From Macrocystis pyrifera (Eukaryota > Sar > Phaeophyceae > Laminariales > Laminariaceae): a stretch of DNA of 64,000 nucleotides. This document shows, one piece after another, positions 15,701-40,086 of this stretch. The stretch lies in contig JASSKH010000009.1 of the NCBI GenBank assembly GCA_031763025.1, positions 2,294,001-2,358,000 of the forward strand, written 5' to 3'. Under the pieces are notes generated by a model that was given only the letters and a program-made list of their open reading frames with translations, was not told the origin of the DNA and did not search any database. Made by a program: the position numbers and the translations under genes. Positions within the stretch are counted from its first letter, which is position 1. Each line of letters opens with the position of its first letter.

Positions 15701-18700
15701 CCGTTCACGCGCAGCTCGCAGCCGGCACCGTGGACCTGAGGCAACTCTTTCGTGAGCTGTTCGAACTTTTCCTGCGTGCATCATCAGAGAGCAGGAGGAG
15801 GCACGCACCGACAAATGAGGTACTGGTATACGCGTTTATAGCGGTAGCGGCTTCATTGCGCGTGTTACGGTAGGGAAATGTAGCATCCACACATAATACG
15901 TATATATATGATATCTAGGTACCAGGGATCATACAACAACACAAAAGCAACGATAGTACGTACGTATTTATGCAGAAGTAGTGACGACCGTCGCTCATTG
16001 GGCTCGCGACCGCCGTGTCCTTGTTCGACGAGTCTACTACTCTCCGCACTGCTGTATCCTGTACCAGGTGCCATCAATACAATAACATAAACTACGAAAC
16101 CACTAAATGGTAACACCTACTGTAGGGAACAGCAGGGCAACGATTGCCCTGATCTAATTGTACAGTGTATTAAACAGCAGTATTTGTATACCTCGCCCAA
16201 CAACCGACGTTAATCCTTTTAGTACTGCACCGTACATGTACCTAAATTTAACTCTATTTTCAAGTATTTTGTCCCCACGACGGGAGTGCAATCCTAAATG
16301 CCTAAAAGGGGTCACATTTGCCACTGGACCTTCATTTTTCAGGGACAACAAAAACACTACTAATAGGAGGAATTAGAGGTAGGATGATCATTCTTGGAAA
16401 TGGAAATGGGTTGGAAGAAAAAACGGAAGCTGTAATACGTACATAACCCCGATACACAAAAAATAAAGTATGTAAATTTTAGATATGCGAATCGGATCAA
16501 ACTATATTGCCTACTATATCTCCTCAGTTGCAATGACGGAGGAGTTCCGTCAGCGAGAAATGGTTCGGCTCAAAAGCGCAATCCATAGCTGCAACCTCTA
16601 GACGTGCCGCCCCTAATTGCAACCCCTACAAAGGTGCAACCAACTCCCGACTGCAACCCGGACAAGCGCAACCCCTGCTTGCAACCTCTATCTGCAAACC
16701 CTTCAAGCGTAACCCCCAATTGCACCTCTTACAAGGGCAACCCCTAATTGCAACCCCTTCGTGTGCAACCCCTAATTGCAACCCCTACAAGTGCAGCCCC
16801 TAATTGCACCGTTCCGTAGCAAGGCTTTGCGTGAAAGACGGCAACCTTACCCCAACGGACACACTCCGTACTGCCAGCGGCAGCCTAAGCCCCTACGCCT
16901 ACGCTTTGCGTCGCTTAGACGTACACATGAATATCAAGACTTGCTTCTAAAACAAAAGGGGGCGAATCCCACTAGACCGTGTTGAATCCCTACAAGTAGC
17001 CCACCCGCCATCACAAGTACGAGCCTGCAGCCCTGCGAAAAGCGCTACAGCAGTCGTTGCGACCTCCTCTGTGCGACCGTTTACCCCCAGAGTAGGTGAC
17101 GGTGAAACTTAGTAAATTGTCCATAAGCCGGCGGGAACGCAAATTATGGCTGAGCTATAGTCGTATAATCGGGTGAGAAAAATGTACTTCCTTCGTTGTT
17201 TCTTTGTTGCCTTCCCGGCAATCATCCCACCACATAACTACCCGCCGCCTGGTCGAGGAACAAGCATAAGCGTAAGGTGGAGTAACTGCCAGAACGGCCG
17301 TTGAGTTCGCACAGGGGTGGTGCGATCGCCTTTCAGCTCGACGTTTCCAGAACGGGAGGGTTGCCAAACACCGAAACAAGGGAGGCGTTTTTCGCTGGCC
17401 GAGAGACGTTCCGACAACATGATGTTCCGACTTTAGCCCCCTTACCGTAGTCGATACAGCGAGCGCTGAAAAACGATTGCCTAACCCCCTCTGCGCGAAC
17501 TCAATGCTCTACCATTCTGTCCCTAGATATAGGAAACGTTTTTATTGAATATTAGAATACAAAAAGTTCCTTAGATTTCGGGACAGAGTGGTATACGGTA
17601 ACACTGCACGTACGGGGAAGAAAAGAGTGTTGGCATCAATGTGGCCCTGGGTTAACTTCTGCATTGCGCAGCAGGAAAAACAAGCAACTAACCCCCGTGG
17701 AAAGCCCCGTGTCGGTGATGAACAGGGAGCGTTGGGCGAGTATCCCCCGCGCTTCGGGAGGGGTTGAAGGTGCGGCCGCCTCGTCTCCCTTTTCCCCCTT
17801 GCTTTCGTCTTCTTGCAAGAGGGGCTCGTGAGCTTTGTCCGCGAGGTGGTGCGACAAAGCTTCCTTAAGCGAGGCTGGGTCCTGGAAAAGTAAAAAACAA
17901 CAACGCACCAAAGGGGGTGGGGGGGGGGGGGGGGGGGGGGGGGGATGATCACGAAATAATGAACCATGTAGTCATATTACTGTACAGCATGACCACGGCC
18001 TAGAGTAAGGCATTGAGGCTCCAATAAATTTAAGATCGTCATCAACAACCACACAACCGAGTACATGATCGGCCAAGGCAGCTGTTGCCGTCGCGGTCAA
18101 CAAGAGGCTATAGCCGGGTTAACCTGAAGACCAACTCCATTGTCAACCATTTCCGACGGGGCGGCGACGGCGGCGTGAGGGGGGGTGGGGGGGTGTAGAT
18201 ACTGTAATATCATGCATGGCCGTAGTCATACGACGTTACGGCAAAAAAAAAAACCTAACGTTTATTTTTCCGTTTGCCGCTGCAAAGAAATGGCGAACCG
18301 AGTTACTCCGGGGGGAACAGCTTGATGGACAACAAACTGTTCGTACGAACCAAGCCAATCTGTGTATGGATGACACCCTTGTACAAAAAAATCTCCGGTG
18401 AGACCGGCTGTGGTGCCAATCGCGAGATGAGCAGGGCGGGTCCAAGGAGAGTAATTTGCTCGCGTGCGGATACAGGGAGTTGACATGGACAGCTGCCTGT
18501 CTCCACGGGGGTTGATATTGTTGCGAGTGAATGCGAGTTGATAATTTTGATGGCGTGTACATTTTTGCCTTTTTTCGCGACATGCCGTGGCACCACCTGC
18601 GGTAAAACCTTCCACGGCATCTTCCACGGCAAACCACCGAACCTTCCATGGACCTCCACGGCATACCATAGGACCCAAACCCTAACCCCAACCCTAACCC

Positions 18701-19667
18701 TAACCCTAACCCCAACCCCAACCTAGGTGCCGTGGACATTGGGGTGCCGTGGGGGTTGCCATGACATGCCTTGGGGTTGCCATGGAGTGCCGTGGCGGTA
18801 GCCCGGGGGTTGCCATGGTACTACCCATGGCATGTCATGGCAACCCCGACGGCGTGCCATGGAATCCTATGCCACACCATGGGATGCCGTGATGCCATGG
18901 TATGCCATGGGCGGTACCATGGCAATGCCACGGCATGCCCACGACAAGGTCAAATAGTGTAGAACCCCGACAAATAGGGGGGGGGTTTCGAGATGCCAGA
19001 AGCATTCGCCGTCACGGTGGTCACGGGGACGCACGCACACAAGCTGACGACAGTTTCGTACAGATATCCTGGCCCCGCCAGTTCCTATTGATGGCAACAG
19101 CTGCACTATCTTTATTGCAGAGCTCTGCGCGTGCTTCTGCTGGGTCACGTACATATGGTAAAGAATCGATACGGAATAGACACCAATGATCCCCGAGGAA
19201 ACGGAACGAGCATCCAAGTTGCCCATACATAGTATCAGGTGTACTACTGCATTTGAAAAAAAAAGTGGGGCGATGCTGGGGGAGGCCAAGTCGTTCATGA
19301 GTTGTCGCGACGCCTGGCGTAAATGGACCCGTCCCGATGTGTTGTTTCGGGTAGTGCGCGCCCAGTATCTGCGTGGCCGATTTTCACGTATGAACAATGT
19401 ATCGCAGCTATTCATAACGGCCAACGGAACACCCCATGTCCCGTAATGTTACCACCCCTTGCGTGCTACAGCAGTTAGCACCTAAAAAAATACAAAATTT
19501 CAACAGTACGCGTGCCGATTTGCGAAAGTAGCAGTCATACACACACGCACCGCGGGCAGATGGTACCCGTAGGCCTCCAGAAGGGACGTGAGCTGGCCAA
19601 TCACGTCCTTCTGAACGTACGCCTGCCGCTTGTAGTAGTTCCAATCGCCATCGTGACTGCTCGTATC
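647..19667 (-). CDS. Gene A: full-size ABC transporter, PDR/ABCG type (N-terminal part, NBD1 and TMD1; 3' end off the window)
   Basis: ATP-driven membrane exporter of the pleiotropic drug resistance subfamily, expected in the plasma membrane. Exons in coding order: 19667-19551, 17881-17693, 15771-15577, 13042-12950, 12245-12108, 10610-10449, 9251-9143, 8187-8090, 7741-7691 (weak), 6853-6756, 6010-5827, 5218-5047, 4662-4601, 4005-3958, 3206-3096, 743-647. Reading phase is compatible across nearly all junctions, which is strong evidence for one gene. Seen in order: pre-NBD segment, Walker [23 protein letters not shown], signature [14 protein letters not shown], Walker B/D-loop [33 protein letters not shown], then TMD1 helices including [16 protein letters not shown] precedes TMD, as in ABCG proteins. 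NBD2 and TMD2 would lie beyond the left edge. The start codon was not found and should lie upstream of 19667. Walker B has Ser where family members usually have Glu. Confidence 0.88.
1085..1200. repeat. Clustered GGGTACCCG palindromes
   Basis: The KpnI-like palindrome GGGTACCC occurs around 1098, 1111 and 1180, with CTACCC variants between. The flanks are TTTCTGGAG and its inverted counterpart CAATTTCCAG. It looks like a short diverged palindromic repeat inside an intron of gene A. Confidence 0.5.
1353..2106 (+). repeat. Tandem duplication in gene A intron, about 600-bp period
   Basis: Positions 1357-1490 and 1962-2103 share ordered blocks such as GAGGGGACGCCAGCAG, GACCCCTTT, AAAGCCTC(G/A)TTGTTG and CGTGAGCGA(C/T)ATC. 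A further block with GATCCCAAACTAT occurs at 1917 and 2312, and a similar one (ATCCCAAACAATG) near 8027. Divergence is moderate, so the duplication is not recent. Confidence 0.7.
2620..2990 (+). repeat. AT-rich degenerate tandem array (TTGAATTTAGTGTG-like)
   Basis: Blocks resembling CTTGAATTTAGTGTG recur at about 2684, 2759, 2783 and 2865 with 25-80 bp spacing, mixed with GAAGTTAGTGTGG. This is an AT-rich minisatellite-like tract in a gene A intron. Confidence 0.5.
3096..3206 (-). CDS. Gene A exon: TMD1, QRGVFYKQ segment (37 codons)
   Basis: Acceptor CCTTCCAG, donor GTAAGC, phase 0. It encodes [20 protein letters not shown] and then [17 protein letters not shown]. The R-x-V-F-Y-K-Q-x-x-x-x-F-Y-P pattern is diagnostic of ABCG TMD1. 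Confidence 0.92.
3958..4005 (-). CDS. Gene A micro-exon: TM2 (16 codons)
   Basis: Acceptor ATTTTGCAG, donor GTGCGT. It encodes exactly [16 protein letters not shown], a hydrophobic helix in the right frame between the KFG exon and the IPTAISQRG exon. It matches the family pattern L-F-F-x-x-x-F-x-x-x-x-G-x-A-Q. Confidence 0.88.
4601..4662 (-). CDS. Gene A exon: TMD1, [11 protein letters not shown]
   Basis: Acceptor GCCTCAG, donor GTGAGTAAG, 62 nt starting with two bases of a split Gly codon. It encodes [20 protein letters not shown], the TM1 end and the loop after it. Phase 0 at the 3' end. Confidence 0.9.
5047..5218 (-). CDS. Gene A exon: elbow helix and start of TMD1
   Basis: Encodes the connecting segment [19 protein letters not shown] and then [19 protein letters not shown]. 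The donor GTGAGG leaves one base that joins the next exon as Gly ([15 protein letters not shown]). The 5' limit is one of two AG acceptors 15 nt apart; the longer form is given. R-D-x-A-x-x-x-x-x-x-x-x-x-A-L-V-M-G is typical of the PDR coupling and TM1 region. Confidence 0.85.
5383..5462. repeat. Hairpin MITE family 1 copy
   Basis: A decayed copy of a small palindromic element whose arms read ACTGCAGTCCCGTTTTGGGG and its reverse complement, with CTAATTCCAAGT at the turn. The 3' arm TTTGTCCCCAAAACGGGAGT is clear; the 5' arm is degraded. Other copies are at 10097, 16209, 19873, 52126 and 59343. Confidence 0.65.
5827..6010 (-). CDS. Gene A exon: NBD1-TMD1 linker ([11 protein letters not shown])
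   Basis: Acceptor TTGCCAG. The first base completes the split Gly, giving the junction [21 protein letters not shown]. The C-P-x-x-K-D-x-A-D-x-L-x-E-x-T element is a PDR hallmark. The 3' limit is uncertain. A GC donor (AAG|GCAAGG) at 5826 keeps phase 0 with the next exon; a GT donor five bases downstream (exon end 5822) does not fit the next acceptor. Confidence 0.88.
6254..6364. repeat. MITE family 2 (CTATTACGG termini), 111 bp
   Basis: Termini CTATTACGGGGGACCATAGT and its reverse complement with two mismatches. The core is ATATATAGGTTTTTGTG. Two more copies (13221-13336 and 52422-52533) share termini and core, so this is a mobile family. Confidence 0.85.
6756..6853 (-). CDS. Gene A exon: end of NBD1 (TFELFDNI)
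   Basis: Acceptor AAACAG, donor GTAAGAG, 98 nt. It encodes [20 protein letters not shown] and ends YFNTL, leaving GG to be completed as Gly by the next exon. The E-L-F-D-N-I/V-x-L-M-x-E-G-x-I-x-Y-x-G pattern is typical of PDR NBDs. Confidence 0.93.
7691..7741 (-). CDS. Gene A candidate micro-exon between Walker B and the LFDN segment
   Basis: NBD1 needs a short stretch between QTLK and TFELFDNI. The 51-nt segment [17 protein letters not shown] lies in the right place, follows a CTTTCAG acceptor and is exactly 17 codons, phase 0 to 0. It resembles the family's A-L-K-x-x-V-x-S-L-L-Q-P segment but seems shortened. The donor would be GC (CAG|GCGACG), not GT. It is a weak or degenerate exon; a different exon may have been missed. 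Confidence 0.4.
7895..8005 (+). repeat. Short repeat shared by introns of genes A and B, copy 1
   Basis: GGGCATCCCCGGA(G/A)TGGG, CCTGCTGGAA and CAGA(G/A)GAAG occur in the same order at 49068-49150. It lies next to the Walker B exon in gene A and beside the 48757-48718 exon in gene B. Confidence 0.65.
8090..8187 (-). CDS. Gene A exon: Walker B and D-loop, with Glu to Ser change
   Basis: Acceptor TGTCACCAG, donor GTAGTA, 98 nt, completing the split Gly codon. It encodes [20 protein letters not shown] followed by [12 protein letters not shown]. Related PDR NBD1 sequences read F-M-D-E-I-S-T-G-L-D, so the general-base Glu position is Ser here (codon AGC). This could reduce ATP hydrolysis at this site, as in the degenerate site of many full-size ABC exporters. 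Confidence 0.93.
9143..9251 (-). CDS. Gene A exon: ABC signature (36 codons + 1 nt)
   Basis: Acceptor CCTCCGCAG, donor GTGAGT. It encodes [20 protein letters not shown] and [13 protein letters not shown]. The ABC signature (C motif) VSGGE is intact. It ends with one base of a Gly codon that the next exon completes. Confidence 0.95.
9886..9902. repeat. Poly(C) run
   Basis: Seventeen consecutive C, following GCGAGCCTCGCTCG. It is one of at least eight long poly(C)/poly(G) runs here (others near 17920, 41447, 47124, 47312, 48090, 48183, 53613). Confidence 0.9.
10097..10171. repeat. Hairpin MITE family 1 copy, both arms intact
   Basis: Arms CAGTCCCGTTTTGGTGACAA and TTTGTCTCCAGAACGGGACT are near-perfect inverted repeats around CACTCAAATTCCAAGT. 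This is the best-preserved hairpin of the family in the window. Confidence 0.75.
10326..10432. repeat. MITE family 3 copy (ACCCACGATGGGC core)
   Basis: Contains GGCCCATCGTGGGTTCTGAT, whose reverse complement appears near 14015 and 47777. Termini resemble CTACGGGAGAACC and GGCCCCTCGTAAGAG. Related diverged copies: 14012-14098, 15356-15474, 47762-47876. Confidence 0.55.
10449..10610 (-). CDS. Gene A exon: NBD1 helical domain (54 codons)
   Basis: Acceptor TTCTTCAG, donor GTGATG, phase 0. It encodes [18 protein letters not shown] and ends [12 protein letters not shown]. The x-P-T-M-T-V-x-E-T-L-x-F-A pattern is characteristic of PDR/ABCG NBDs. It joins in frame to [10 protein letters not shown] in the next exon. 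Confidence 0.93.
11013..11490 (+). repeat. Tandem duplication, about 248-bp period
   Basis: Two units, 11013-11260 and 11261-11490, share CATGGGGCTCT, TGCTCTACCGAACAG, TCGTCGGGCTTC, TAGTTCGACGATCG and GATACAAGGAG in order. It lies in a gene A intron directly before the dispersed repeat at 11490. Confidence 0.75.
11490..11810 (+). repeat. Dispersed 0.32-kb GC-rich repeat with hairpins, copy 1
   Basis: Matches 50538-50850 over its whole length by eye, in the same orientation. Conserved blocks include GACCAAGTCCGGCGGG, AGCTCGCGCGAGTCCCACAC, TGCCCAAGCGCCAGTGGTAA and GAGCTTAAGC. It contains evident stems (GCTCGCGCGAG; GCCCCTCTCGGGGG). It looks like a structured RNA-derived repeat or SINE; no known RNA family is assigned. 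Confidence 0.7.
12108..12245 (-). CDS. Gene A exon: end of Walker A to Q-loop (46 codons)
   Basis: Acceptor TCAACAG, donor GTGAGA, phase 0. It starts [16 protein letters not shown], continues [13 protein letters not shown] and ends LVHFVEQ. The terminal VEQ is the Q-loop glutamine region that contacts nucleotide and couples to the TMD. Confidence 0.92.
12950..13042 (-). CDS. Gene A exon: NBD1 Walker A (31 codons)
   Basis: Acceptor CCCCAG, donor GTGCGA, phase 0. It encodes [20 protein letters not shown] followed by PGCGK. The P-loop GPPGCGK is completed by the Ser that opens the next exon, so an intron splits the Walker A motif (GxxGxGK|S). The strand and the order of motifs match PDR NBD1. 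Confidence 0.93.
13140..13450. repeat. GATCATCTGCAGAT repeat, copy 1 (split by a MITE)
   Basis: Contains GTTGCCGGGCGGGACCCG before the MITE, then TCCTGGGTTGGATCTGTACT, CTCACAACGGCAGG and GATCATCTATCTGCAGAT after it. Copies at 44060-44365 and 49265-49480 have the same order without the MITE. Confidence 0.7.
13221..13336. repeat. MITE family 2 copy, inserted in another repeat
   Basis: Same termini and ATATATAGGTTTTTGTG core as the copy at 6254. It interrupts the GATCATCTGCAGAT repeat, whose other copies (44060-44365, 49265-49480) lack the insert. Confidence 0.85.
14101..15347 (-). mobile_element. hAT-like TIR element (1.25 kb) with subterminal 41-bp repeats
   Basis: Perfect 22-bp terminal inverted repeats: 14101-14122, starting CAAGGGTGTGTTCGG, and 15326-15347. 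The flanks TAATATTTA and TAATATTAT suggest a target duplication of about 8 bp with a slip. Alternatively, if the outer TA is counted in, a 5-bp ATATT duplication. Both ends carry arrays of a 41-bp unit (GGTACCGAACGTACCGAAAT...). The arrays at 14141-14460 and 15010-15300 are direct copies of one another. The centre holds a poly(T) tract and a coding exon on the minus strand. TIR length and the CA-GGGTGT start fit hAT elements, but this is inference. Confidence 0.75.
14596..14816 (-). CDS. Possible first exon of a transposase, inside the hAT-like element
   Basis: ATG at 14816-14814 opens 73 codons ending at a GTAAGG donor. The protein starts [20 protein letters not shown], is rich in Pro, Ser, Asp and Ala, and ends TEYVVPV before the donor. 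No transposase core domain is present in the element, so this is probably a 5' remnant in an internally deleted, non-autonomous copy. The function cannot be read from the sequence. Confidence 0.4.
15356..15474. repeat. MITE family 3 copy
   Basis: Begins CTTACGGAGGACC and ends TTCCCCCGTGAGAG, with CATGTTTGGTTCTGA and CATCTTTGGTTCTGA inside. It lies immediately right of the hAT-like element. Confidence 0.5.
15577..15771 (-). CDS. Gene A exon: region preceding NBD1 (65 codons)
   Basis: Acceptor CACGCAG, donor GTACGT, phase 0. It encodes [20 protein letters not shown], then [11 protein letters not shown] and a segment ending [15 protein letters not shown] proteins have a comparable L-P-x-x-E/V-R-x-x-x-L segment just before NBD1. 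It joins directly to the Walker A exon. Confidence 0.8.
16209..16300. repeat. Hairpin MITE family 1 copy
   Basis: Carries the family's ATCCTTTTAGTACTGCA start, TAACTCTATTTTCAAGT centre and TTTGTCCCCACGACGGGAGT arm. The 5' arm has diverged. Confidence 0.65.
16585..16815 (+). repeat. Minisatellite TGCAACCCCTA
   Basis: More than a dozen copies of (T)GCAACCCCTA with variable 2-6 bp joints (ATT, CAAGTG, CGTG). It is strongly strand-asymmetric. It lies in a gene A intron. Confidence 0.8.
17693..17881 (-). CDS. Gene A exon: acidic N-terminal linker (63 codons)
   Basis: Acceptor TTTTCCAG, donor GTTAGT, phase 0 both ends, 63 open codons. It starts [20 protein letters not shown] and continues through a charged, Glu/Lys-rich low-complexity stretch to DTGLSTG. 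It fits between the neighbouring exons in frame. A 25-base poly(G) run lies just upstream in the intron. Confidence 0.6.
17918..17944. repeat. Poly(G) run
   Basis: About 25 G on the plus strand, interrupted once by T at its left edge, in the intron immediately upstream of the 17881-17693 exon of gene A. Confidence 0.9.
18190..18240 (-). repeat. CATGCATGGCCGTAGTC retroposon family, 3'-end fragment
   Basis: A G-rich stretch is followed by ATCATGCATGGCCGTAGTCA. The same border recurs at 24143, 42960, 43505, 47030, 48183 and 50907. On the minus strand these end in poly(C). Confidence 0.6.
18555..18971. repeat. Dispersed repeat with interstitial telomere array, copy 1
   Basis: A core of CCCTAA/CCCCAA units (18672-18723) sits between two arms rich in CCATGG, CCACGGCAT and its inverse TGCCGTGG. 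The left arm has TGGCACCACCTGCGG. The right arm has GTTGCCATG and ends CCACGACAAGGTCAAATAGT. A near-identical copy is at 39640-40086. The telomeric units match the TTAGGG motif. Confidence 0.85.
19551..19667 (-). CDS. Gene A exon: N-terminal segment (39 codons)
   Basis: Begins after a pyrimidine-rich CCTCTCCAG acceptor and ends before a GTGCGT donor, phase 0 at both ends. It encodes [20 protein letters not shown] and ends YGYHLPA. It joins in frame to the next exon and looks like the helical N-terminal region before NBD1. It has no ATG, so at least one more upstream exon is expected. Assignment rests on phase and position more than on motifs. Confidence 0.6.
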
Positions 19668-24370: not shown

Positions 24371-24494
24371 TATGGCAACCAAGAGGCAGTTACATAGTAC
24401 TCCCATTGCTGTCTGTGGAAGTGGCCACACCGGAAATTAAACTAACTCATTGAAGCTGTCATCTATATATATTTTTTTTTTTATTTTTTTATTT

Positions 24495-25135
24495 TTTTTT
24501 CTCACTTTTACTTTCCAGCCCACTCGTAGGAGGTTTTACCCTCGACGATCTTCTGGACAAGCCGTGGTCACAGGTGTCGTCCCTTGTCCCCCCCGGTACG
24601 TGCCTTTAGTTTTTATCGCGCATAGGGTTCAGCATTCCCACTGCTCGTCGATTTTCATCGAATGTACGGCTAACTCACGCTCTCGCGCTTTCCGCTAATC
24701 AATTTTATGCAAGAAAAAGTCCGTACGAGCATGCACTCGGTGAGACTCGAACTCACGAAATTGATCTTGATAGGCTCGCGGACCACCTACCAAGCCACCG
24801 GGGACGCCGGCATACGTTGAACACTACGTGATACGATCAATTCCCTTGTGCAGAGTAAAGGTTCTTTACTTCGCACAAATGATCTAACTAGACGACCAGC
24901 TGTGGGCGACCGCCAAAAAAAAAAAAAAAAAAAAAAACGGTACCCTGGATGTCTGAGCGGCATGTTTTACAGTGTCGTTGCCAACCGACGCCAACCCAAC
25001 CCATATGAACCCTATGCGCGATAAAAACTAAAGGCACGTACCGGGGGGGAGAAGGGACGACACCTGTGACCACAGCTTGTCCAGAAGATCGTCGAGGGTA
25101 AAACCTCCTACGAGTGGGCTGGAAAGTAAAAGTGA
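24495..25135. repeat. Nested inverted repeat (0.13-kb arms)
   Basis: 24497-24631 and 25008-25135 are inverted copies sharing CCCACTCGTAGGAGGTTTTA, CTCGACGATCTTCTGGACAA and TTTTTATCGCGCATAGGGTT. The interval holds a tRNA-like segment and a 23-base A run. Confidence 0.8.
24722..24812 (-). repeat. tRNA-derived SINE head
   Basis: On the minus strand, GGTGGCTTGGTAGGTGG (A box like) and GTGAGTTCGAGTCTCACCG (perfect T arm and B box). The acceptor ends do not pair, so it is a tRNA-like retroposon segment. Confidence 0.6.
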
Positions 25136-25139
25136 TGAT

Positions 25140-25140
25140 G

Positions 25141-25183
<43 letters not shown>

Positions 25184-25482: not shown

Positions 25483-26844
25483 CATATAATACTACAGCAG
25501 TATGGTGTGGGCCAAGGTGTGTGTGTACAGCAGTAGTTCACATTAACCATCGTTTCTACCCGTCGACATCTTTATTTTTTTGTTTCGAAAATTTCTTGTT
25601 TTCGCGCTTGATCCTCTCAGTGACTTTCATTTTCTTTTTTCTCTTCCTTTCTTCTATTGATGAGGAGTCGTGCGGCGTGGGGGGGTGACGAGCCTGTTTC
25701 GTGCTGTCTAACGCCGAGGGTCGGGGCATAGTTGACGAACGCAGGATGGAAACGGCAGACAGGGTAGCAAGGTCTATGCTACTCAAACCACAAACTACTG
25801 CCGCTACCTGCAGGGTATTTTGTTCGGTTTGCCTGTTATTTTCCCTTGGTTCTTACAGCATGCAGCAGTGGTCTCACTCTGTGTATTAGTAGAGAGGTGT
25901 TTTTTTTCTCTTGTGTCGGTCACATCCCTCCGATCCCTCCCGGCGAGGCACGACAGTTTTCTTTTCTTTTCTTTTTTTCTCTCCTTCACGTATCTGCTTT
26001 CGATTTGTTTTCTTTTTTCTTTGCTCTTCTCTTTCTTTATCTTATTTCGTTTTCTAACAGAAAATGCATGTTCTGCCTGTTACACCCAGTACGTACCTGG
26101 TATGGCATTGCATTGCATTGTGTACTATGTTGTGTTATGCGTACGTAACAATGTAGTATCCCTATCCCTGTGGCGTAGTTTTGTGACCACAGAAGAACTT
26201 GTAGCTCTCTAGGATTGAAGAATCGGCACGGACACACTGGTTGTGCTGGATGTCGACGGGTAGAAAGAACGGTTGAAGAACACACATCGCCTGTGGCGAT
26301 TTTTCATACACGCTCTGTGCTCACAAAACTACACGAGATACTACATTAATTATTGTGTGTGTGTTGTCTTCCCACTAAACGTTTCAAATATATCGGTTGA
26401 ACTCACAGCTGACGTGCTTTCTTAGTTTCTTATAAATATATATATATATAAAAATCTTCGAGGAACCTTTCGGTAATTATTTATTTTTCGATTCGGAAAT
26501 GTTATCTGACCAAAACAATTAAATAAATTGACCCCAATTTCAATTTAATTATTTCGTACTGGAAATAGAGAGAATTATTTATTTTCCGTCTTCGGGCACA
26601 CGAAAAGTCTTTTCTACCCACGGCTTCATCAGTACACCCAGTATGCGTCCTGATTCCTGATACTAGAGAGATGCTAATTCTGTGGTCACAGACTGGACTG
26701 GGAGAAAGCCCAAAGACAAAAAAAAAAAAAAAAAACAGGTAACAAAAAGCAAAAGAAATGCCATCACAACACACAACGAAGACCAGGAAACAAGAACACA
26801 AGACTATTTTTTTTTAATGTAAAAATCGGTAAAAATGGAATACA

Positions 26845-27062
26845 GACGAGGCGTAATACGCAGCTTGCACAGTTGAGTATCAACTATTTAATCAGTCGAA
26901 CTCACAGCTGACGTATTTCAAAATTTATTAAAAAAAAATTGAAATACGTCAGCCTGGAGTTCGACTGATTAAATATATATAAAAATTTGAAATACGTCAG
27001 CTGTGAGTTCGACGGATTAAATAGTTGATACTCAACTTTGCAAGCTGCGTAATACGTCTCGT
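26845..27062. repeat. Foldback element, about 78-bp arms
   Basis: The arm at 26845-26925 (CTTGCACAGTTGAGTATCAA, CTATTTAATCAGTCGAACTC, ACAGCTGACGTATTTC) is inverted at 26985-27062. A third arm copy lies at 26937-26980. Single arms also occur near 26395 and 41655, so the family is mobile. Confidence 0.85.
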
Positions 27063-27124
27063 CTATATACAAATAAAAAAAATACCAATGACGCAATAAG
27101 ATCAGAAAGGCTGCTGCTGTTTCC

Positions 27125-29720: not shown

Positions 29721-30261
29721 TGAAAAGTATACTCACAGCATTGTCAGATTATCTTGAGAGGAAATATCCCGTGAGGTATTGCGGAGATTCGGGGGGGTTT
29801 CGTGTCTGAGTGGATCTACGATCGGGATACCATCTTTACCCCTGAATTGTGCTTTAGGCCGCATGTGTCTGTGACGTACGCTGTGGCTTGTTACTTCTTC
29901 TTGTAATCTACCTCCTTTCCCGACTCCGTGTCGACGACTCCGTGTCGAGGACTCCGTGTCCAGGACTCCGCGTCCTTCAATCCAAACTACTAAACAGGGG
30001 TTAATCAGCCACCGTACTAAACCGGGGTTAATCAGCCACCGTACAAAAGGGGGTCCGTCCACCCAGGGGCTAACACGCCACCGCCACCGCTGCTATCAAG
30101 TCCAGCTTCAATACATTTCATATCATCAACAGGGCTCCTCAGCCACGACAAGGGTACGGGTTGTTTATAGGGTTTATTTCGTCTTTCTTTTCCGCCGAGC
30201 ATCGGGCTATCCCCCTCGGCAACAACAACAAGGGCGCCCGGAGCACAGGGGCTACTCAACA
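29721..30261 (+). repeat. 5' LTR of the copia element
   Basis: Starts TGAAAAGTATACTCACAGCA and ends GGGGCTACTCAACA (TG...CA). It is 541 bp. By eye it differs from the 3' LTR at one base (CTACCTCC here, CTACTTCC there). Confidence 0.96.
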
Positions 30262-30312
30262 CGCTAGCGTTGGTACGAGTCGTCCACGCTTCTGTGCAAA
30301 AGGGCTGTGAGG

Positions 30313-32189
30313 ATGAGGTTCTTCCCGTTTAGGATTCCTTATCTGGGGACTTGGATTACGCCGGTCATCGATGGAGACATGGCGATGGGAGGAGGAGGAG
30401 GAGCAGCAGCATCTCCTCAGGATTCTGGTCAGGATGAGGCTGATCAGCGAGGGGTGGCCTCAGAGGAAAGGAGGGAGGATGCACGACAGGACCTGCCGAG
30501 TCCAGAGGACATCCGGCGGCTGACAATCCTGGCGGATCTGATACGTCAAGGGGTTGGGCAACAGAGCGGGCCCGCCCACCCTTCAGGCATGTCTACAACT
30601 GTAGAAGTACGAACTAAACTTGAGATTAGAGAGTGGACTGGTATGGTAGGAAAAGGAGAAAGCCTTCACACTAAGTTTAGGGTGTTTGAGAGTTCATTTC
30701 GTGCATATCTGGCAGCTGAGAAATTGTCTGACGTTCTTGGGTACGAGGACATTCCCGTAGGGTTGCCTGACGTGGATTTGGAAATGCTCAAATTGAACAG
30801 AGGTGCAGAAAGAGTGGAGAAGTCTTTGAGAGTATGGAACTTGCTGCTGACAAAAATCACCGACGGTCCGACTCAAAACCGAATCGTCGCGTCTGGGAGC
30901 CCTCAGCAAGGATGGAGGATTTTTGTGTCACAGTACAGAGAAGGATATGACATGGAGGGAGAGCGTTTAGAGAGGGAATGGAACGAGTTGTGGCAGGGCG
31001 ATGGTGAAGATGTCTTGGAATACCTTCGTCGTGGGGAGACTATCGTGATGAACATGAACTCCCGCTTGGGCCCTAGTGGCCACGGTAAAAAGCCTGAAGA
31101 TGTTGTATGTCGCCATATCGCCCGACGTCTAAACACCTCTTTTACCCGCGCTCGGGAATCCCTTATTTTTTTTCCGAATCTCTCGAGGAAACACCTGGAG
31201 TTTACCTTGACACAGGCCCAGCACGAGCGTCGGCAGTCCGGGGGAGAGGGACACCGAAGTGAGGAGACGAGGCACGCGCTCTACACTGGCGGCATGGGTC
31301 GGAGTGGACCATCCTACGGCAGGGGCCAGGATGATGGTGGAGCACGCGCTGCAGGATGGAACGGTGGAGGAGCAGGCGCTGCCGGATGGAACGGTGGCGG
31401 AGCAGGCGAGCGAGGCCCTCACCAACAGTCACCGATGTTCTGCAGACGACACGGCCCGAACGACTCCCACAACACCGCGGACTGCGTGGCCCTTCGACGG
31501 GAGTTCGAGGAATTCTTGGCCTTCCGCGAGCAGAGAGGAGCCCAGGGATTTGCGCATGAAGGCCGACAGACGGGGCGGGAAATTGACGGAATTCGCCGCC
31601 CGGACTTCGTGCAAGATCGACCCAGGGAGCAGCCACAACGTTCAGACGGGAATTGGGGTCGAGGCCTCCCGCCAAGGCAGGCACCTGGTCGTGGACGCGG
31701 GCCTGCAGGGTACACGGGTCGCCAACCGGGGGGGAGAGGTTTCGCGGACGGGCGTCCTTCCTCCTCCGGCGGCAGGGGGGCGAGCAGAGCACCGAATTTC
31801 CGCCCTAATTTTCCACCTCGCTCTGCCACCCACAACGGGCCCCCGCGTTACGCGAACTACGCTGGGCACAACGACGGCTACGGGTACAACGCTACTGCGG
31901 ACGAGCGCTGGGCTGCTTCGGAATGGCAATCCTACGAGGAGCAGCAGTACTCCCCCGAGACGCAAGAGTACGGCCTCGCAGCTCAAGCGAGCGGCTCTCG
32001 GGAAGGCTACGGAGACGTGAGCGGAGGATACGGCTCAGGCTATTTCTCCGGCGGCGGGGGAGTTTACCCGCCGCAGCCCGCCGTTCATGGCGATGGCACA
32101 TACGGCTCTTACGCAGGATACTCTCCAGCTGGACCAGACGCCTTTCAGCCGATGCGGTATCTGGAACCGAACGGCGCGTCACAGCAGCA

Positions 32190-32234
<45 letters not shown>

Positions 32235-33141
32235 ACAGCAATACGGAGTTCAGCAGGGTCGTTCGGCTCAGCAGCCCGCCAGCGCCGCCTCATTCTCTCT
32301 CACTTCGTCGTCTCCCTCTTCCGGATCGCCGTCGTCTCAAGGGCCTCTTCGTAGCTGTGTGGCATTGAATGTGTCTCGAGGCAAGTTTGATTTGGTGTCC
32401 GATTTGGTGTCTGATTCGGCGTCTGACTTGATTGATTTCGGTGTGGAATCTCCTGCTTCTGAGTGCAAGTCTGGTGTGACTAAGGAGAGTGAGACTGTGC
32501 TTGTGAGTGCGCATGTGACGGAATCTGCTGTGAGTGCTGCTTTGCTGTGCGAACCCCAATCCTCGCTCACTCCCTCCCCTCCCGGAAGTGAGAAATGGAC
32601 GTCTGATTCTGGATCCACGTCGTACGTAACGAACGACAAGACTCTCATGTACGATTTGCGTGACGTTGAGCCAAACCGCGAGTTCATCCAGATTGGAAAC
32701 AAAGGCATGATTCCCGTGGTAGGGGTAGGAAGCATCAACTTGCGATTCCACATGTATGATGAAGACGGATTCGTGAAGGATTTTGACGTGCAATTGAAGG
32801 AAGTTTTGTATGCACCACAGATCGGCTTCAACCTTTTTTCCGCGTGGAAAGCTTCTCACCGCCAGGTCGTTACCCTCGATCCCACGGGTACCCACCTCAT
32901 GGAAGGGCAACTCAACTTTGCACGTGGTAAATCGAGCGATTTCTTGTATGCCACACGTTTGCCCAACGACCCAAGCAGGCAGGTGATCAGTGTTCCCCGA
33001 TTGTTTCCGACTCCGTCTTGCCCGCCTGCATCAGATGACGTACGTGATGTTGCGAATTCGTTTTTCGACTTGTCTTTGTGTGCAGAAAAAAACGCATCCC
33101 GACATGCACCTCGGTCGGGAAGTCGAGGGAGTTCTGAGTGA
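30313..33141 (+). CDS. copia gag and protease ORF
   Basis: The first ATG is at 30313. A gag region of the copia type runs to about residue 320 (EWTGMVGKGESLHTKF, WRIFVSQYREGYDMEGERLE). A zinc-knuckle-like CX2HX5HX4C (CRRHGPNDSHNTADC) lies near 31440. Then comes a long Gly/Arg/Tyr-rich, RGG-like stretch, a poly(Gln) tract, and the aspartic protease with DSGSTSYVTND at about 32605. The frame runs out at 33141, because an A7 run at 33086-33092 shifts it relative to the integrase frame. Confidence 0.9.
32182..32243 (+). repeat. CAG/CAA repeat coding poly(Gln) in copia gag
   Basis: About 20 consecutive Gln codons, mostly CAG with a few CAA, between the RGG-like region and the protease. Confidence 0.95.
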
Positions 33142-34449
33142 CGTGAGGCCTGACGGTGGTTGTGATGAGAGTTCCAGTTGGTGTTTCTCGCCTGAAGTGA
33201 TCCCAGAGAGTGAAGCAGAAATGGACGCGCGACAGTTTGACAGAATAGAGCATGAGCAGGCGAATGCTGTTTTGGGTCCCGGTTCGAATCCGTTCTTTGT
33301 GGGAAACCGCACGTCACACATCGACGTTAACGACTTCCACCGTGCGAATGGCCACCTTTCCGAATTTCTGTTGCGAGAGACCGCCCGCCAACAGGGTATC
33401 ACTCTCACAGGTGTGATGCAGCCGTGTGGGGATTGCATGGCAGCGAAGGGGAGGAACACACCCGTGAGAAAAAGGGCGGGCTCGCGGGCGGAGGAGCCGA
33501 ACGACCTCGTGCACCTCGACTTCTGCGGGCCGTACAGCGCTTCCCTCGGCGGCAATTGCTACATGCTGTACGCCGTGGATAGCGCGACGCGGTTTTCCAA
33601 GTCGTACGCTTTGCGGCGGCGATCGGAGGGTCTCGTGGTGTTCAAGCGTCTCATCGTGGATCTCGCTCGCATCGCCAAGCGCCCCGTCCGCTGCATTCGC
33701 GTGGACAACGACGCCGTCTGGACCAGCGTCGCTTTCCGCGATTTCTGCGCGAGCGCGGGCATCGCCGTCGAGTTTTCTCCGCCCGGCGTCCAGCAGTACA
33801 ACGGAGTGGCCGAAAGCGCGATCTGGCGGGCGAAACAAGGCGGGGATGGCTGCGCGGCGCTGTGCCGCCCGTCTTCTCGGGCCTGGGGGTTTCTCGAACA
33901 TCCCCGGCCTCGACGAGCGCGGCGACAAGCTGTGGGCCGAGTCTGCAAAATGGGCGACGGAGGCGTTCAACCAGTCGGGGACGACCGCAAACGAGGGCCG
34001 CCGGTCGCCGCAGGAGCTGTTCACCGGGAAGAAGGGGCCTTTCCGTGTCCTGCCGTTTTTCCAGCGAGGATACATGCGCGTCGAGCGGCGGAACAAGATG
34101 GAGGACCAGGCCGCCGTCTGCCACTACCTGAACGGAGGCGACAACCACGCGGACTGCTGCGTCAAGGTCGTGAAGGCGCGCACGGGGCATGTTTGCTACA
34201 CGAGCAACGTGTCATGGGCGTCGCTGCCGTCGTCGGGGGGGGGGAATTCACGTGGAGTCGGTGTCCCTCTCTCCCCTTCCGCGCCTGCGCCGCCCCCGCA
34301 CCCAGGTTTCCAGATCCAGTTCGTGCCGCCGCAAGGGCCTGCCGCTCCGCCGCCGTTCAGGGCCGCCGCGCCGTCGCCGTTGTCCGTGGAGCCGACCAGG
34401 TTCGGAGCCATGCCGCTGCCCAGAGGAGCTTCGCCGTCTTCTGCGCCGG
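33093..34449 (+). pseudogene. copia integrase (frameshifted) and its C-terminal extension
   Basis: The HHCC zinc motif (FHRANGHL...QPCGDC) lies at 33340-33440 and the catalytic core follows: LVHLDFCGPY, RVDNDAVW and YNGVAESAIW supply the D, D and E. At 33842-33845 a GGGG run shifts the frame; dropping one G in reading restores continuity into the segment that starts MAARRCAARLLGPGG. The extension is Pro/Ala-rich (PPPHPGFQIQFVPPQGPA) and is cut by the palindromic junction at 34450-34460. Confidence 0.85.
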
Positions 34450-34460
34450 CCGCGTCATCG

Positions 34461-35560
34461 CCGGCGCAGAAGACGGCGAAGCTCCTCTGGGCAGCGGCAT
34501 GGCTCCGAACCTGGTCGGCTCCACGGACAACGGCGACGGCGCGGCGGCCCTGAACGGCGGCGGAGCGGCAGGCCCTTGCGGCGGCACGAACTGGATCTGG
34601 AAACCTGGGTGCGGGGGCGGCGCAGGCGCGGAAGGGGAGAGAGGGACACCGACTCCACGTGAATTCCCCCCCCCGACGACGGCAGCGACGCCCATGACAC
34701 GTTGCTCGTGTAGCAAACATGCCCCGTGCGCGCCTTCACGACCTTGACGCAGCAGTCCGCGTGGTTGTCGCCTCCGTTCAGGTAGTGGCAGACGACGGCC
34801 TGGTCCTCCATCTTGTTCCGCCGCTCGACGCGCATGTATCCTCGCTGGAAAAACGGCAGGACACGGAAAGGCCCCTTCTTCCCGGTGAACAGCTCCTGCG
34901 GCGACCGGCGGCCCTCGTTTGCGGTCGTCCCCGACTGGTTGAACGCCTCCGTCGGCTGCCTTGCTTGCGTAGTCAGCGTCTGCAAATGCAACCAAGTTCA
35001 GCCCCTCGACAGTACCTCTCTGAAATGAAATACCAAAATGGCTCGCCGAAACTGATTCACTGGAATGCGGCGCTCAATATCCTGGGGTATGCAGTGAGGA
35101 CGAGCCATTTTGGTATTTCATTTCAGAGAGGTACTGTCGAGGGGCTGAACTTGGTTGCATTTGCAGACGCTGACTACGCAAGCAAGGCAGCAGACAGGAG
35201 GTCGGTGTCAGGAGGAGTGATTCTGTGTGCGGGGGGGCCGGTCAGCTGTATCTCGAAGACGCAGAATTGTGTGACAAAATATCGTGCGCAACCATAGCCA
35301 TGCTCACATACTCTGCCTGCGTCGTAGATGTTGTCACACAATTCTGCGTCTTCGAGATACAGCTGACCGGCCCCCCCGCACACAGAATCACTCCTCCTGA
35401 CACCGACCTCCTGTCTGCTGCCTTGCTTGCGTAGTCAGCGTCTGCAAATGCAACCAAGTTCAGCCCCTCGACAGTACCTCTCTGAAATGAAATACCAAAA
35501 TGGCTCGTCCTCACTGCATACCCCAGGATATTGCAGTTCGCCGAAACTGACACCCGGGGG
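34461..35560. other. Rearranged insertion inside the copia element: five alternating-orientation copies of its own sequence
   Basis: Segments, read left to right: 34461-34954 is the reverse complement of about 33955-34449; 34955-35045 the reverse complement of 37308-37398; 35044-35277 a forward copy of 37251-37484; 35275-35533 the reverse complement of 37282-37540; 35529-35550 a forward copy of 37241-37262. From 35561 the sequence returns to a forward copy of 34245 onward. Junctions share 2-5 bases (CG, CAA, TATTG). The first inverted copy differs from its source at two places (one substitution, one G/C-run length). Confidence 0.9.
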
Positions 35561-37825
35561 AATTCACGTGGAGTCGGTGTCCCTCTCTCCCCTTCCGCGC
35601 CTGCGCCGCCCCCGCACCCAGGTTTCCAGATCCAGTTCGTGCCGCCGCAAGGGCCTGCCGCTCCGCCGCCGTTCAGGGCCGCCGCGCCGTCGCCGTTGTC
35701 CGTGGAGCCGACCAGGTTCGGAGCCATGCCGCTGCCCAGAGGAGCTTCGCCGTCTTCTGCGCCGGCCGCGTCATCGCCGGCGCCGTCGCCGCAGCAAGCA
35801 TCGGGAGCGCCGTCGTCCGGCTCGCACCCGCTTCCGGCATGGTCTCCGTCCCCGATCCATGGAGCTTCTTCGCTTGGTGGTTCATCATCATCTGAGCCGA
35901 CGCCGGCGGCGTCGTCGCGGCAACAGCGCCCGCCGCCGGCAGCTGCCGCGAGATTTCCGCCTCTCACTCCGCATGCTATGAGACAGGTCGGGGGTGAAGG
36001 GGATCGTCGGATTCAAGGGCGCACTCGGCTGCAAGCACGGGCGATCGCGGAGCAGAGGATGCTTTCCCCGATGGTGGATGGGGCCGTAAACTCGCCGCTG
36101 CCGGAGTCTTCGCCGGGAGATGGGCACCGTTTGGGTCTTGCTTCTCAGGTCGGGCCGAACGTGATGGCGGCGTGGGAGAGGACTGCCTGTGCGACGAGGG
36201 AGCATATCGATGCGGTCATTCGTGACGAGGTTCCGCCTCTTCAGCGTCCCGAAATGCCCACTTGACACGCGAGTGACCTTCACGTGCCGAAAAGTTACAG
36301 GGATGCCGTGCAGGGTGATCATTCGGTGCAGTTTTCAGATGCCATGCAGAGAGAAATTCACGGGTTGGCTGAAGGACAGGTTTTCGAGCCTGTGGCGGAG
36401 CAACAGCAGATAGACAATTGTATCGGGTCGAAATGGGTGTTTGACTGGAAGGTTGATGCGTTCGGTTGGCCTGTGAAAGCGAAGGCGAGACTTGTTGCCA
36501 GAGGTGATATGCAGAGAGAATTCTTGGATTTTGGGGAACTGTATGCACCTACTGTAGATGTGTCGTGTGTTCGTTTGCTGGCAGCCTTGGCGTGTGAGCT
36601 TGACTTGGGGTTGTTTCACCTGGATGTTGATCAGGCTTTCGTCCGAGCGGAACTCGAGGAAGAGGTGTTCATGCGTTTACCGCAGGGATGTGGTGCGTTG
36701 TCGGGGAAGATCGTGAATTTGGGCAAGAGTCTTTACGGGTTGAGGCAGGCATCCAGGCAGTGGTTTGCGAAGTTGAAGAAATGTCTTTTGCGTCTGAGTT
36801 TCGAACAGTGCCTGGCAGATCCATGTGTGTTTCGTCTGATTGAGGAAGGAAAAGTCGTTTTGCTCTTGGTGGTTCACGTCGACGACATTTTTGCAGTGGG
36901 AGAACAGGCAAGGTGTGATCAGTTCAAGGAAGACCTGAACAAATTGGTTCCAGTGAAGAACTTGGGGGATTTGACGTGGTATTCCGGGTGCTATTACGAG
37001 AGAGACAGGGAGGCAGGAAGATTGACGATTTCCCAGAAGACATACGTCGACAACCTGGCAGGAGAATACGGTGTTACGTGGGGGAAAAGTACGCCGTTGA
37101 GCACGACGTACAGACTTTGGGAGTTTGATGTAGATGAGCCGGAGGTGAACGAACCTTTTCGACAATTGGTCGGATCGCTTCTGTGGGTCGCTCGGTTGAC
37201 CAGACCCGATCTTTTGAACGCAGTACGGGCAGTAGCGAGGTATTGCAGTTCGCCGAAACTGATTCACTGGAATGCGGCGCTCAATATCCTGGGGTATGCA
37301 GTGAGGACGAGCCATTTTGGTATTTCATTTCAGAGAGGTACTGTCGAGGGGCTGAACTTGGTTGCATTTGCAGACGCTGACTACGCAAGCAAGGCAGCAG
37401 ACAGGAGGTCGGTGTCAGGAGGAGTGATTCTGTGTGCGGGGGGGCCGGTCAGCTGTATCTCGAAGACGCAGAATTGTGTGACAACATCTACGACGCAGGC
37501 AGAGTATGTGAGCATGGCTATGGTTGCGCACGATATTTTGTTTCTGAGGCAGGTATGGCGGTTCATGTTGCCGAAGGCTGGTATGCCGTGCATTCCTTTG
37601 TTTGAGGATAACGAGGGGGCGATTCAGATCGCGAAGCATCCGATTTCGAATTCGAACTCGAAGCACATTGACGTGCGGCACCACTTTCTGAGGGAGCTAG
37701 TGGAGAGGAAGGAATTGGAAATTATTCACGTAGCTTCGAGGTACCAGCACGCAGACTTTCTCACGAAGCCGTTGCCTGAGAGAGAGTTTGAGTTCCACCG
37801 GAATTTTGTGATGAATTTGAGGTGA
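35561..37825 (+). pseudogene. copia reverse transcriptase and RNase H
   Basis: The frame continues from the Pro/Ala-rich linker through a TGA stop at 36263-36265, then stays open to 37825. RT motifs: GSKWVFDWKVDAFGWPVKAK, FHLDVDQAFVRAELEEEVFM, LYGLRQASRQW and the catalytic VVHVDDIF. RNase H: FADADYASKAADRRSVSGG, TTSTTQAEYVSM, DNEGAIQIAKHP and KHIDVRHHFLREL. Both domains are intact; the only lesion seen is the stop in the linker. Confidence 0.93.
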
Positions 37826-38435: not shown

Positions 38436-38976
38436 TGAAAAGTATACTCACAGCATTGTCAGATTATCTTGAGAGGAAATATCCCGTGAGGTATTGCGGA
38501 GATTCGGGGGGGTTTCGTGTCTGAGTGGATCTACGATCGGGATACCATCTTTACCCCTGAATTGTGCTTTAGGCCGCATGTGTCTGTGACGTACGCTGTG
38601 GCTTGTTACTTCTTCTTGTAATCTACTTCCTTTCCCGACTCCGTGTCGACGACTCCGTGTCGAGGACTCCGTGTCCAGGACTCCGCGTCCTTCAATCCAA
38701 ACTACTAAACAGGGGTTAATCAGCCACCGTACTAAACCGGGGTTAATCAGCCACCGTACAAAAGGGGGTCCGTCCACCCAGGGGCTAACACGCCACCGCC
38801 ACCGCTGCTATCAAGTCCAGCTTCAATACATTTCATATCATCAACAGGGCTCCTCAGCCACGACAAGGGTACGGGTTGTTTATAGGGTTTATTTCGTCTT
38901 TCTTTTCCGCCGAGCATCGGGCTATCCCCCTCGGCAACAACAACAAGGGCGCCCGGAGCACAGGGGCTACTCAACA
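38436..38976 (+). repeat. 3' LTR of the copia element
   Basis: Same 541 bp as the 5' LTR with one visible substitution. The flank continues GTCGCTTTC, completing the target duplication. Confidence 0.96.
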
Positions 38977-39639: not shown

Positions 39640-40086
39640 GTACATTATTGTCTTTTTTCGCAATAATGCCGTGGCATGCCGTGGCACCACCTGCGGCAAA
39701 ACCTTCCACGGCATCTTCCACGGCATACCACGGAACTTTCCACGGACCTCCACGGCATACCATGGGACCTTTACCCTAACCCTAACCCTAACCCTAACCC
39801 TAACCCCAACCCCAACCCCAACCCTAACCTAGGTGCCGAGGACATTGGGGTACCGTTGGGGTTGCCATGACATTCCATGGGGTTGCCATGGAGCGCCGTG
39901 GCGGTAGCTGCGGGGGTTGCCATGGTACTACCCATGGCATGTCATGGCAACCCCCACGGCGTGCCATGGAATCTATTGCCACATCATGGTATGCCGTGGT
40001 GATGCCATGGTATGCCATGGGCGGTACCATGGCAATGCCACGGCATGCCCACGACAAGGTCAAATAGTGTAGAACCCTGGACAATG
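39640..40086. repeat. Dispersed repeat with interstitial telomere array, copy 2
   Basis: Same architecture and boundaries as the copy at 18555: TTTTTTCGC start, CACCACCTGCGGCAAAACC, a CCCTAA/CCCCAA core at 39772-39827, AACCTAGGTGCCG, CCATGG-rich right arm, and CACGACAAGGTCAAATAGTG end. The same orientation and equal end points indicate a mobile or duplicated unit and not two independent telomere remnants. Confidence 0.85.

What the first reader, a model, noticed from the sequence alone, without database searches (positions are those of the whole stretch)
34461..35560. Chain of template switches inside a young copia element
A 1316-bp insertion consists of five pieces of the same element in alternating orientation: inverted linker, inverted RNase H, forward RNase H, inverted RNase H, forward 22 bp. 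It then returns to a direct repeat of the linker from 34245. Junctions share 2-5 bp. This could arise from repeated strand switching during reverse transcription, from microhomology-mediated replication repair, or from an assembly error. Two small differences between the first inverted copy and its source argue mildly against a simple assembly duplicate.
Basis: seen in the sequence. Interest (0 to 1): 0.75.

Follow-up and report, generated by a model that had tools for sequence, protein, structure and literature searches.

The report
Fold-back scar inside a kelp retrotransposon
A very young copy-and-paste element, most likely in giant kelp, carries a 1.3-kb insertion made of five pieces of itself in alternating directions, probably left by a DNA-copying enzyme that repeatedly folded back and jumped while the element was being duplicated.

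Summary
The structure is real in the assembly. Junction overlaps are 8, 0, 3, 4, 5 and 0 bp (the last with 5 unexplained bases), not 2-5. None of 39 other near-identical insertions fetched has it, and junction 5/6 occurs once in the 537-Mb assembly. The first inverted piece carries two SNPs that this copy shares with only one of those 39, so its template was this lineage. At its one substitution (34114) the piece keeps the family base; the change is in the source. Self-copying alone cannot explain the chain: piece 3 runs past pieces 2 and 4. The four U-turns have 3-8 bp microhomology; the two long jumps are blunt. A second copy (C190, LTRs identical) has another fold-back chain, TSD ATCCG, and a junction 5 nt past the inner end of its 5' LTR. 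Best explanation: template switching and fold-back priming at the cDNA stage, before integration (0.55). Chromosomal break repair is the main rival (0.30). Artefact is unlikely (0.10), but no reads were available.

The parts
29721..30261 (+). 5' LTR (TG...CA), preceded by target-site duplication GTCGC
   Evidence: 543-bp match to the 3' LTR region with 1 mismatch; flanks and TSD read; the single LTR difference is at 29912/38627
30307..33141 (+). gag-protease ORF
   Evidence: the ORF listing; Pol_BBD PF22936, 1e-12
32990..34467 (+). integrase region and linker, up to the point where the forward path leaves (34467)
   Evidence: rve PF00665, 2.7e-10, on the ORF 32990-34744
34443..34467 (+). natural hairpin, 8-bp stem and 9-nt loop, where the first U-turn happens
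   Evidence: arms 34443-34450 and 34460-34467; the stem is in the predicted single-strand fold of the second linker copy
34460..34954 (-). piece B1, inverted copy of 34450..33955; 8-bp overlap at its start, blunt at its end
   Evidence: two differences, a run length and the substitution at source 34114
34955..35045 (-). piece B2, inverted copy of 37398..37308 (RNase H), 0 mismatches
35043..35277 (+). piece B3, direct copy of 37250..37484, 0 mismatches; 3-bp overlap with B2; extends past B2 on both sides and past the end of B4
35274..35533 (-). piece B4, inverted copy of 37541..37282, 0 mismatches; 4-bp overlap with B3
35529..35550 (+). piece B5, direct copy of 37241..37262, 0 mismatches; 5-bp overlap with B4
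35551..35555 (+). 5 bases of unexplained filler
35556..35783 (+). return to the linker: direct repeat of 34240-34467 (228 bp, 0 mismatches), entering inside the G10 run 34235-34244
36284..37825 (+). reverse transcriptase-RNase H ORF; source of B2-B5
   Evidence: RVT_2 PF07727, 7.1e-44
38436..38976 (+). 3' LTR, followed by target-site duplication GTCGC

Best explanation
The insertion is a fossil of faulty copying of this element's own DNA, most likely at the cDNA stage before integration. Shown: five self-derived pieces, four microhomology U-turns, two blunt jumps, return 228 bp upstream of the exit with nothing lost, a B1 template of this lineage, and a normal TSD. Inferred: a plus-direction 3' end reached the 8-bp hairpin at 34467, snapped back and copied about 490 bp in reverse to 33955, jumped to the RNase H region, made three more U-turns on intact copies of both strands (offsets 41-58 nt), then jumped back into the G10 run of the linker and resumed. 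The LTR-bounded product was then integrated by the usual route.
For: Piece map and microhomology excess. The first U-turn lies on a perfect 8-bp stem; only one other perfect stem of at least 8 bp with a loop of 3-15 nt was found in 6.9 kb of internal sequence (whose scan missed the present stem at a segment edge). TSD and near-identical LTRs. B1 carries 34211G and 34214A, otherwise found only in L010 among 39 insertions, plus 34395A, so its template was this lineage and not a random family member. Of the 39 other insertions, 37 are plain over this stretch, one has a simple deletion, and one (C190) has its own fold-back chain with TSD ATCCG, an 8-bp-overlap jump, a U-turn at an imperfect natural hairpin, and a junction 5 nt past the inner end of its 5' LTR. 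C190's two LTRs are identical over 514 bp, so its chain is hardly older or younger than its integration. This copy also looks like a two-parent recombinant: 31113C, 34211G and 34214A shared with L010, but 36395G and 38386G shared with L033 and L046, crossover between 34214 and 36395. Pairwise recombination during reverse transcription is documented for Onsen (PMC5668417, passages).
Against: Both strands of intact templates are needed beyond what one nascent strand offers, so one RNA plus its own cDNA is not enough; a second cDNA or a duplex must have been present. Two joins are blunt, as in end joining. In yeast the same mix (longer microhomology inside inverted pairs, NHEJ-like outer joins) arises in chromosomal break repair (PMC11724301, section 19). 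One substitution and one LTR difference in this copy are too few to date the event against integration. Recombinants are common, so a crossover interval covering the site is weak evidence. The 39 copies were the best matches to B1 (40 of 301 first-look candidates were scored), not a random sample.
Confidence: 0.55

Rival explanations
1. Post-integration chromosomal event: a broken or stalled fork in the linker folded back at the hairpin, switched templates along the same element (MMBIR/FoSTeS, or fold-back synthesis plus end joining), and was rejoined 228 bp upstream.
For: The junction classes resemble yeast inverted insertions: microhomology median 6 (range 2-11) between inverted pieces, median 2 (0-4) at outer joins, 30-119 bp between junctions in rtt105 mutants (PMC11724301 section 19); here 3-8, 0, and 41-58. 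Duplex DNA supplies both strands. Nothing is lost. B1's template was this lineage.
Against: Two of 40 near-identical copies carry inverted chains, while the window outside the element has inverted pairs of at least 40 bp only at 83-93% identity. C190's LTR-edge junction has no reason to exist in chromosomal repair, and its LTRs are identical. B1 was copied before, or from a template without, the private change at 34114, which leaves less time after integration.
Confidence: 0.3
2. Library or assembly artefact (chimeric read or mis-assembly among near-identical copies).
For: No reads could be examined; the element belongs to a family with many near-identical copies; the junction 5/6 string is unique in the assembly.
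Against: Overlap assembly does not join inverted pieces at 0-8 bp, so a physical molecule must have carried them. If the assembly is that of PMC10498591 (size and sequence count agree), it is about 100x PacBio of a haploid gametophyte with 15.8-kb mean reads (passages), so single chimeric reads should be outvoted and no second allele exists. B1's base at 34114 differs from its supposed source but equals the family base.
Confidence: 0.1
3. Autointegration, or a nested mobile element inserted in the linker.
For: Integrase-driven self-insertion can rearrange LTR-element cDNA (recalled, no call).
Against: No LTR end and no short duplication at any of the six junctions; every base of the insertion but five is explained by the element's interior.
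Confidence: 0.02

Closest known systems
[quoted passage not shown] abstract, outline and passages seen)
   Same: Copia elements, flanking 5-bp TSD, highly similar outer LTRs, explained by abnormal template switching in reverse transcription
   Different: Those are two-element fusions with a third, internal LTR; a search of the text for words beginning 'inver' gave 0. Here pieces alternate in orientation and there is no third LTR.
Fold-back and distant inverted insertions at DNA breaks in yeast (PMC11724301; abstract and section 19 read)
   Same: Microhomology-joined inverted pieces with longer overlaps than the outer joins; similar offsets in one mutant
   Different: There mostly two inverted pieces, at an induced break, in repair mutants; here five pieces inside a retroelement flanked by an intact TSD
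Pairwise recombination of Onsen during a transposition burst (PMC5668417; passages seen)
   Same: LTR retrotransposon family, strand transfer between two co-packaged RNAs; this copy also looks like a two-parent recombinant
   Different: Exchange between parental members rather than fold-back; a search of the text for words beginning 'inver' gave 0
Defective HIV-1 proviruses with sequence inversions (PMC9238239, review; passages seen)
   Same: Integrated retroelement copies carrying internal inversions
   Different: A review statement only; no junction-level comparison was made here

Membership tests
Ty1/copia LTR retrotransposon (host element) | RVT_2-type reverse transcriptase with integrase upstream of it | tested here: met
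   rve in 32990-34744, RVT_2 in 36284-37822
Ty1/copia LTR retrotransposon (host element) | LTRs with TG...CA ends and a 5-bp TSD | tested here: met
   541-bp LTRs, GTCGC on both sides
Template-switch complex insertion of Sabot and Schulman | Flanking TSD and highly similar outer LTRs | tested here: met
Template-switch complex insertion of Sabot and Schulman | Third, internal LTR between two internal regions | tested here: not met
   The insertion is accounted for by integrase, linker and RNase H sequence plus 5 bases; so it is not filed as a member
MMBIR/FoSTeS-type rearrangement | Several templated pieces with short microhomology at the joins | tested here: met
   5 pieces; overlaps 8, 0, 3, 4, 5, 0; 4 of 6 joins have microhomology; excess over null for five joins
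MMBIR/FoSTeS-type rearrangement | Arises in chromosomal replication, after integration | tested here: inconclusive
   No carrier of the same site without the insertion available; timing by private changes too weak
Fold-back inverted duplication | U-turn at a short natural inverted repeat | tested here: met
   8-bp stem, 9-nt loop at 34443-34467 for the first U-turn only; the other three U-turns share 3-5 bp
Self-primed snap-back of a single nascent strand | Every piece can be copied from the already made strand | tested here: not met
   B3 (37250-37484) runs past B2 (37308-37398) and past B4's end at 37282
Autointegration product | LTR end and short duplication at a junction | tested here: not met

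The most novel reading that the evidence does not exclude
In this kelp copia family, reverse transcription regularly yields fold-back, strand-alternating cDNA chains that still carry both LTR ends and are integrated normally, at a rate of the order of one in twenty insertions (2 of the 40 read here). Inverted chain formation would then be a standing product of retrotransposition rather than a chromosomal accident.
Probability: 0.35. Interest if true: 0.6.

Novelty: new variant of a known kind. Interest (0 to 1): 0.42.

Why it matters
It is a base-resolved chain of copying errors in a copy so young that pieces and sources are still almost identical, with 39 close relatives as controls and a second, independent case in the same family. 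That makes a question usually argued from single examples testable: whether complex inverted scars in LTR elements are made in the particle or on the chromosome.

Tried and rejected
Single-strand self-priming was rejected because B3 extends past B2 and B4. Autointegration and a nested element were rejected (no LTR end, no short duplication at the junctions). Copying of B1 from a random family member was rejected by the lineage SNPs; B2-B5 cover no SNP shared between copies, so their template within the family is undetermined. A second allele of the same locus: the closest relative over the integrase-linker stretch, L010 on C44, has different flanks, so it is another insertion. Protein search with the 241-aa chimeric minus-strand ORF: 124 hits, 120 listed, none of the listed covers more than 49% of the query. 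Search with the 235-aa ORF: 19 hits, none covers more than 63%. Both are weak negatives, because such ORFs need not be annotated. Viral contigs and genome contigs gave no relative of the RT protein, and the phage collection no match to 33955-36300. The 5 filler bases have an 8-bp partial match to inverted RNase H by eye; a hit of that length has about 0.24 expected by chance (own estimate), so it was dropped. Searches aligned copies in assembly orientation, which misplaced run-length gaps; one search repeats the table with copies turned to the element strand and is the one to use. The stem scan missed the 34443-34467 hairpin at its segment edge. An earlier reading of C190's U-turn point as 33917 was wrong; one search gives 33911. 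The remark that an apparent primer-binding site (TGG at 30271) follows the LTR is read by eye, not tested.

Full report
What is there. The window lies at G000:C223:2294001-2358000 in a 537,376,219-base, 223-sequence genome. Total size and sequence count agree with the giant kelp Macrocystis pyrifera assembly of PMC10498591 (537 Mb, 223; largest 26 Mb; passages seen); the longest sequence I met is C189, 26.5 Mb. The host name is therefore an inference. Brown-algal origin is supported by reverse-transcriptase hits named Ectocarpus, the best of them at 67% identity. The element is Ty1/copia: LTRs 29721-30261 and 38436-38976, one difference in 541 bp, TG...CA ends, TSD GTCGC on both sides, rve before RVT_2.

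The chain. Forward to 34467; B1 inverted 34460-34954 from 34450..33955; B2 inverted 34955-35045 from 37398..37308; B3 direct 35043-35277 from 37250..37484; B4 inverted 35274-35533 from 37541..37282; B5 direct 35529-35550 from 37241..37262; five unexplained bases; forward again from 34240. B2-B5 and the 228-bp return show 0 mismatches; B1 shows one substitution and one run-length difference. Overlaps are 8, 0, 3, 4, 5 and 0 (with filler). For the five junctions without filler the sum is 20; 20,000 draws within 150 bp of the same breakpoints gave a mean of 3.5 and a maximum of 15. The four U-turns have all the microhomology (8, 3, 4, 5); the two jumps between linker and RNase H region have none.

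Geometry. The first U-turn is a fold-back at a natural hairpin (8-bp stem, 9-nt loop) that appears in the predicted fold of the second linker copy; the whole 81-nt fold is not unusually stable (z 1.15, 180 of 200 shuffles at least as stable). The other three U-turns restart 58, 57 and 41 nt ahead of where the path stopped, read in the plus direction. B3 covers 37250-37484 and so extends beyond B2 (37308-37398) and beyond B4's end (37282): intact templates were needed, not only the growing strand. The return enters the G10 run 34235-34244, the longest G run in the 6.9 kb of internal sequence scanned. All original sequence is retained.

Is it unique? The query 34461-35560 gave 45 places, 5 of them this locus; the other 40 match only the first 494-500 bases, that is B1. 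Only 40 of 301 first-look candidates were scored there, so the family is larger than what I read. The junction 5/6 pattern with up to 2 mismatches occurs once in the genome. The junction 1/2 pattern could not be searched (service busy). The six junction strings are absent, as exact strings, from the 75 fetched loci other than this place's own three. I fetched the integrase-to-RNase H stretch at all 40 places, which are 39 distinct insertions because L038 and L049 are two parts of one. In 37 the stretch is plain, with the linker uninterrupted; L035 has a deletion of about 0.84 kb; the C190 copy is rearranged. The 5' halves of 20 of the 39 show no inverted piece inside the element; one (L067) has a 40-base inverted match in its flank to the CAG repeat.

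What the relatives say about the template. At 34114 this copy's source has C; the others have T (40 of 40 loci; 39 of 39 insertions), and B1 has T. In the protein alignment 6 of the 10 relatives that reach this position have valine, as B1 would. So the change lies in the source, after or outside the copying of B1. At 34211 and 34214 this copy differs from 38 of 39 and agrees with L010 only, and at 34395 it agrees with 4 of 39; B1 carries this copy's states at all three. The template of B1 was therefore this lineage. The run-length difference in B1 is of a kind that is frequent between copies here (for example several 1-bp indels between this copy and L010) and is not used.

A recombinant copy. 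31113C (1 of 20 like own), 34211G and 34214A are shared with L010 only, whereas 36395G is shared with L014, L033 and L046 (3 of 38) and 38386G with L033 and L046 (2 of the 6 copies read there), not with L010. L033 has no substitution against this copy over 35784-37700. This is what strand transfer between two co-packaged RNAs gives; [quoted passage not shown] The crossover lies between 34214 and 36395, an interval that contains the insertion; since recombinants are common this is only mild support, and the exchange may have happened in a parent.

A second case. The copy at C190:14826000-14832500, read in element orientation, runs 5' LTR to 30266, one extra base, inverted 31026-30884, inverted 35921 down to about 33911 (linker uninterrupted), U-turn, forward from about 33877 to the 3' LTR; both LTRs are present and the TSD is ATCCG on both sides. 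Its two LTRs are identical over 514 bp. The jump between the two inverted pieces shares 8 bp exactly; the U-turn shares 3 bp and sits at an imperfect natural hairpin; the first junction is blunt with one extra base and lies 5 nt past the inner end of the LTR, before what looks like the primer-binding site (read by eye). Such a boundary is expected near reverse transcription intermediates and not from chromosomal repair. Unlike the window's copy, this one has lost sequence.

Weighing. For the cDNA stage: two of 40 near-identical copies with inverted chains, both in complete LTR-TSD frames; the LTR-edge junction and identical LTRs of C190; the recombinant nature of this copy; the lineage-specific template. 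Against: need for a second duplex or cDNA, two blunt joins, and the close match in junction classes to yeast break repair (PMC11724301, section 19). Mutation counts cannot decide: one LTR difference, one substitution among the duplicated pieces. The window outside the element has inverted pairs of at least 40 bp only at 83-93% identity (exact seed 16), so fresh inverted scars are not common in this stretch of chromosome.

Novelty. Template-switch insertions in Copia elements are known (PMC1950507) but as fusions with a third LTR; inverted chains are known from break repair and inversions from defective HIV-1 proviruses (review passages). My searches did not show, in their listings, a base-resolved multi-piece inverted chain in a plant or algal LTR element, but the library holds only open-licence papers and I opened only six, so this is not a claim of absence. 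I file it as a new variant of a known kind.

Noticed in passing
L052 and L073 (G000:C190:14824900-14832500): A second family copy with a fold-back chain, both LTRs (identical over 514 bp), TSD ATCCG and a junction 5 nt past the inner LTR end.
   Followed up: yes
L035 (G000:C191:13189271-13191921): A family copy with a simple deletion of about 0.84 kb (36219-37054 in window terms) between linker and RNase H region.
   Followed up: partly
window 33000-36300: The pol reading frame of this copy is broken at several places besides the insertion; some of the breaks may be sequencing noise of the assembly.
   Followed up: partly
window 29988-30014 and 38703-38729: A 27-bp tandem unit in the LTR present once more here than in 19 of the 20 copies whose 5' LTR was tabulated; both own LTRs have it.
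   Followed up: partly
window 56518-57717: Minus-strand integrase (H2C2 zinc finger plus rve) of a second retroelement, probably Ty3/gypsy type, beside a 125-bp tandem pair at 55995-56242.
   Followed up: no
window 18673-18723 and 39773-39829: Short telomere-like ACCCTA arrays, each next to an imperfect repeat of period about 32.
   Followed up: no
window 24461-25176 and 26840-27068: Older inverted pairs (92-93% identity), possibly remains of fold-back elements.
   Followed up: no
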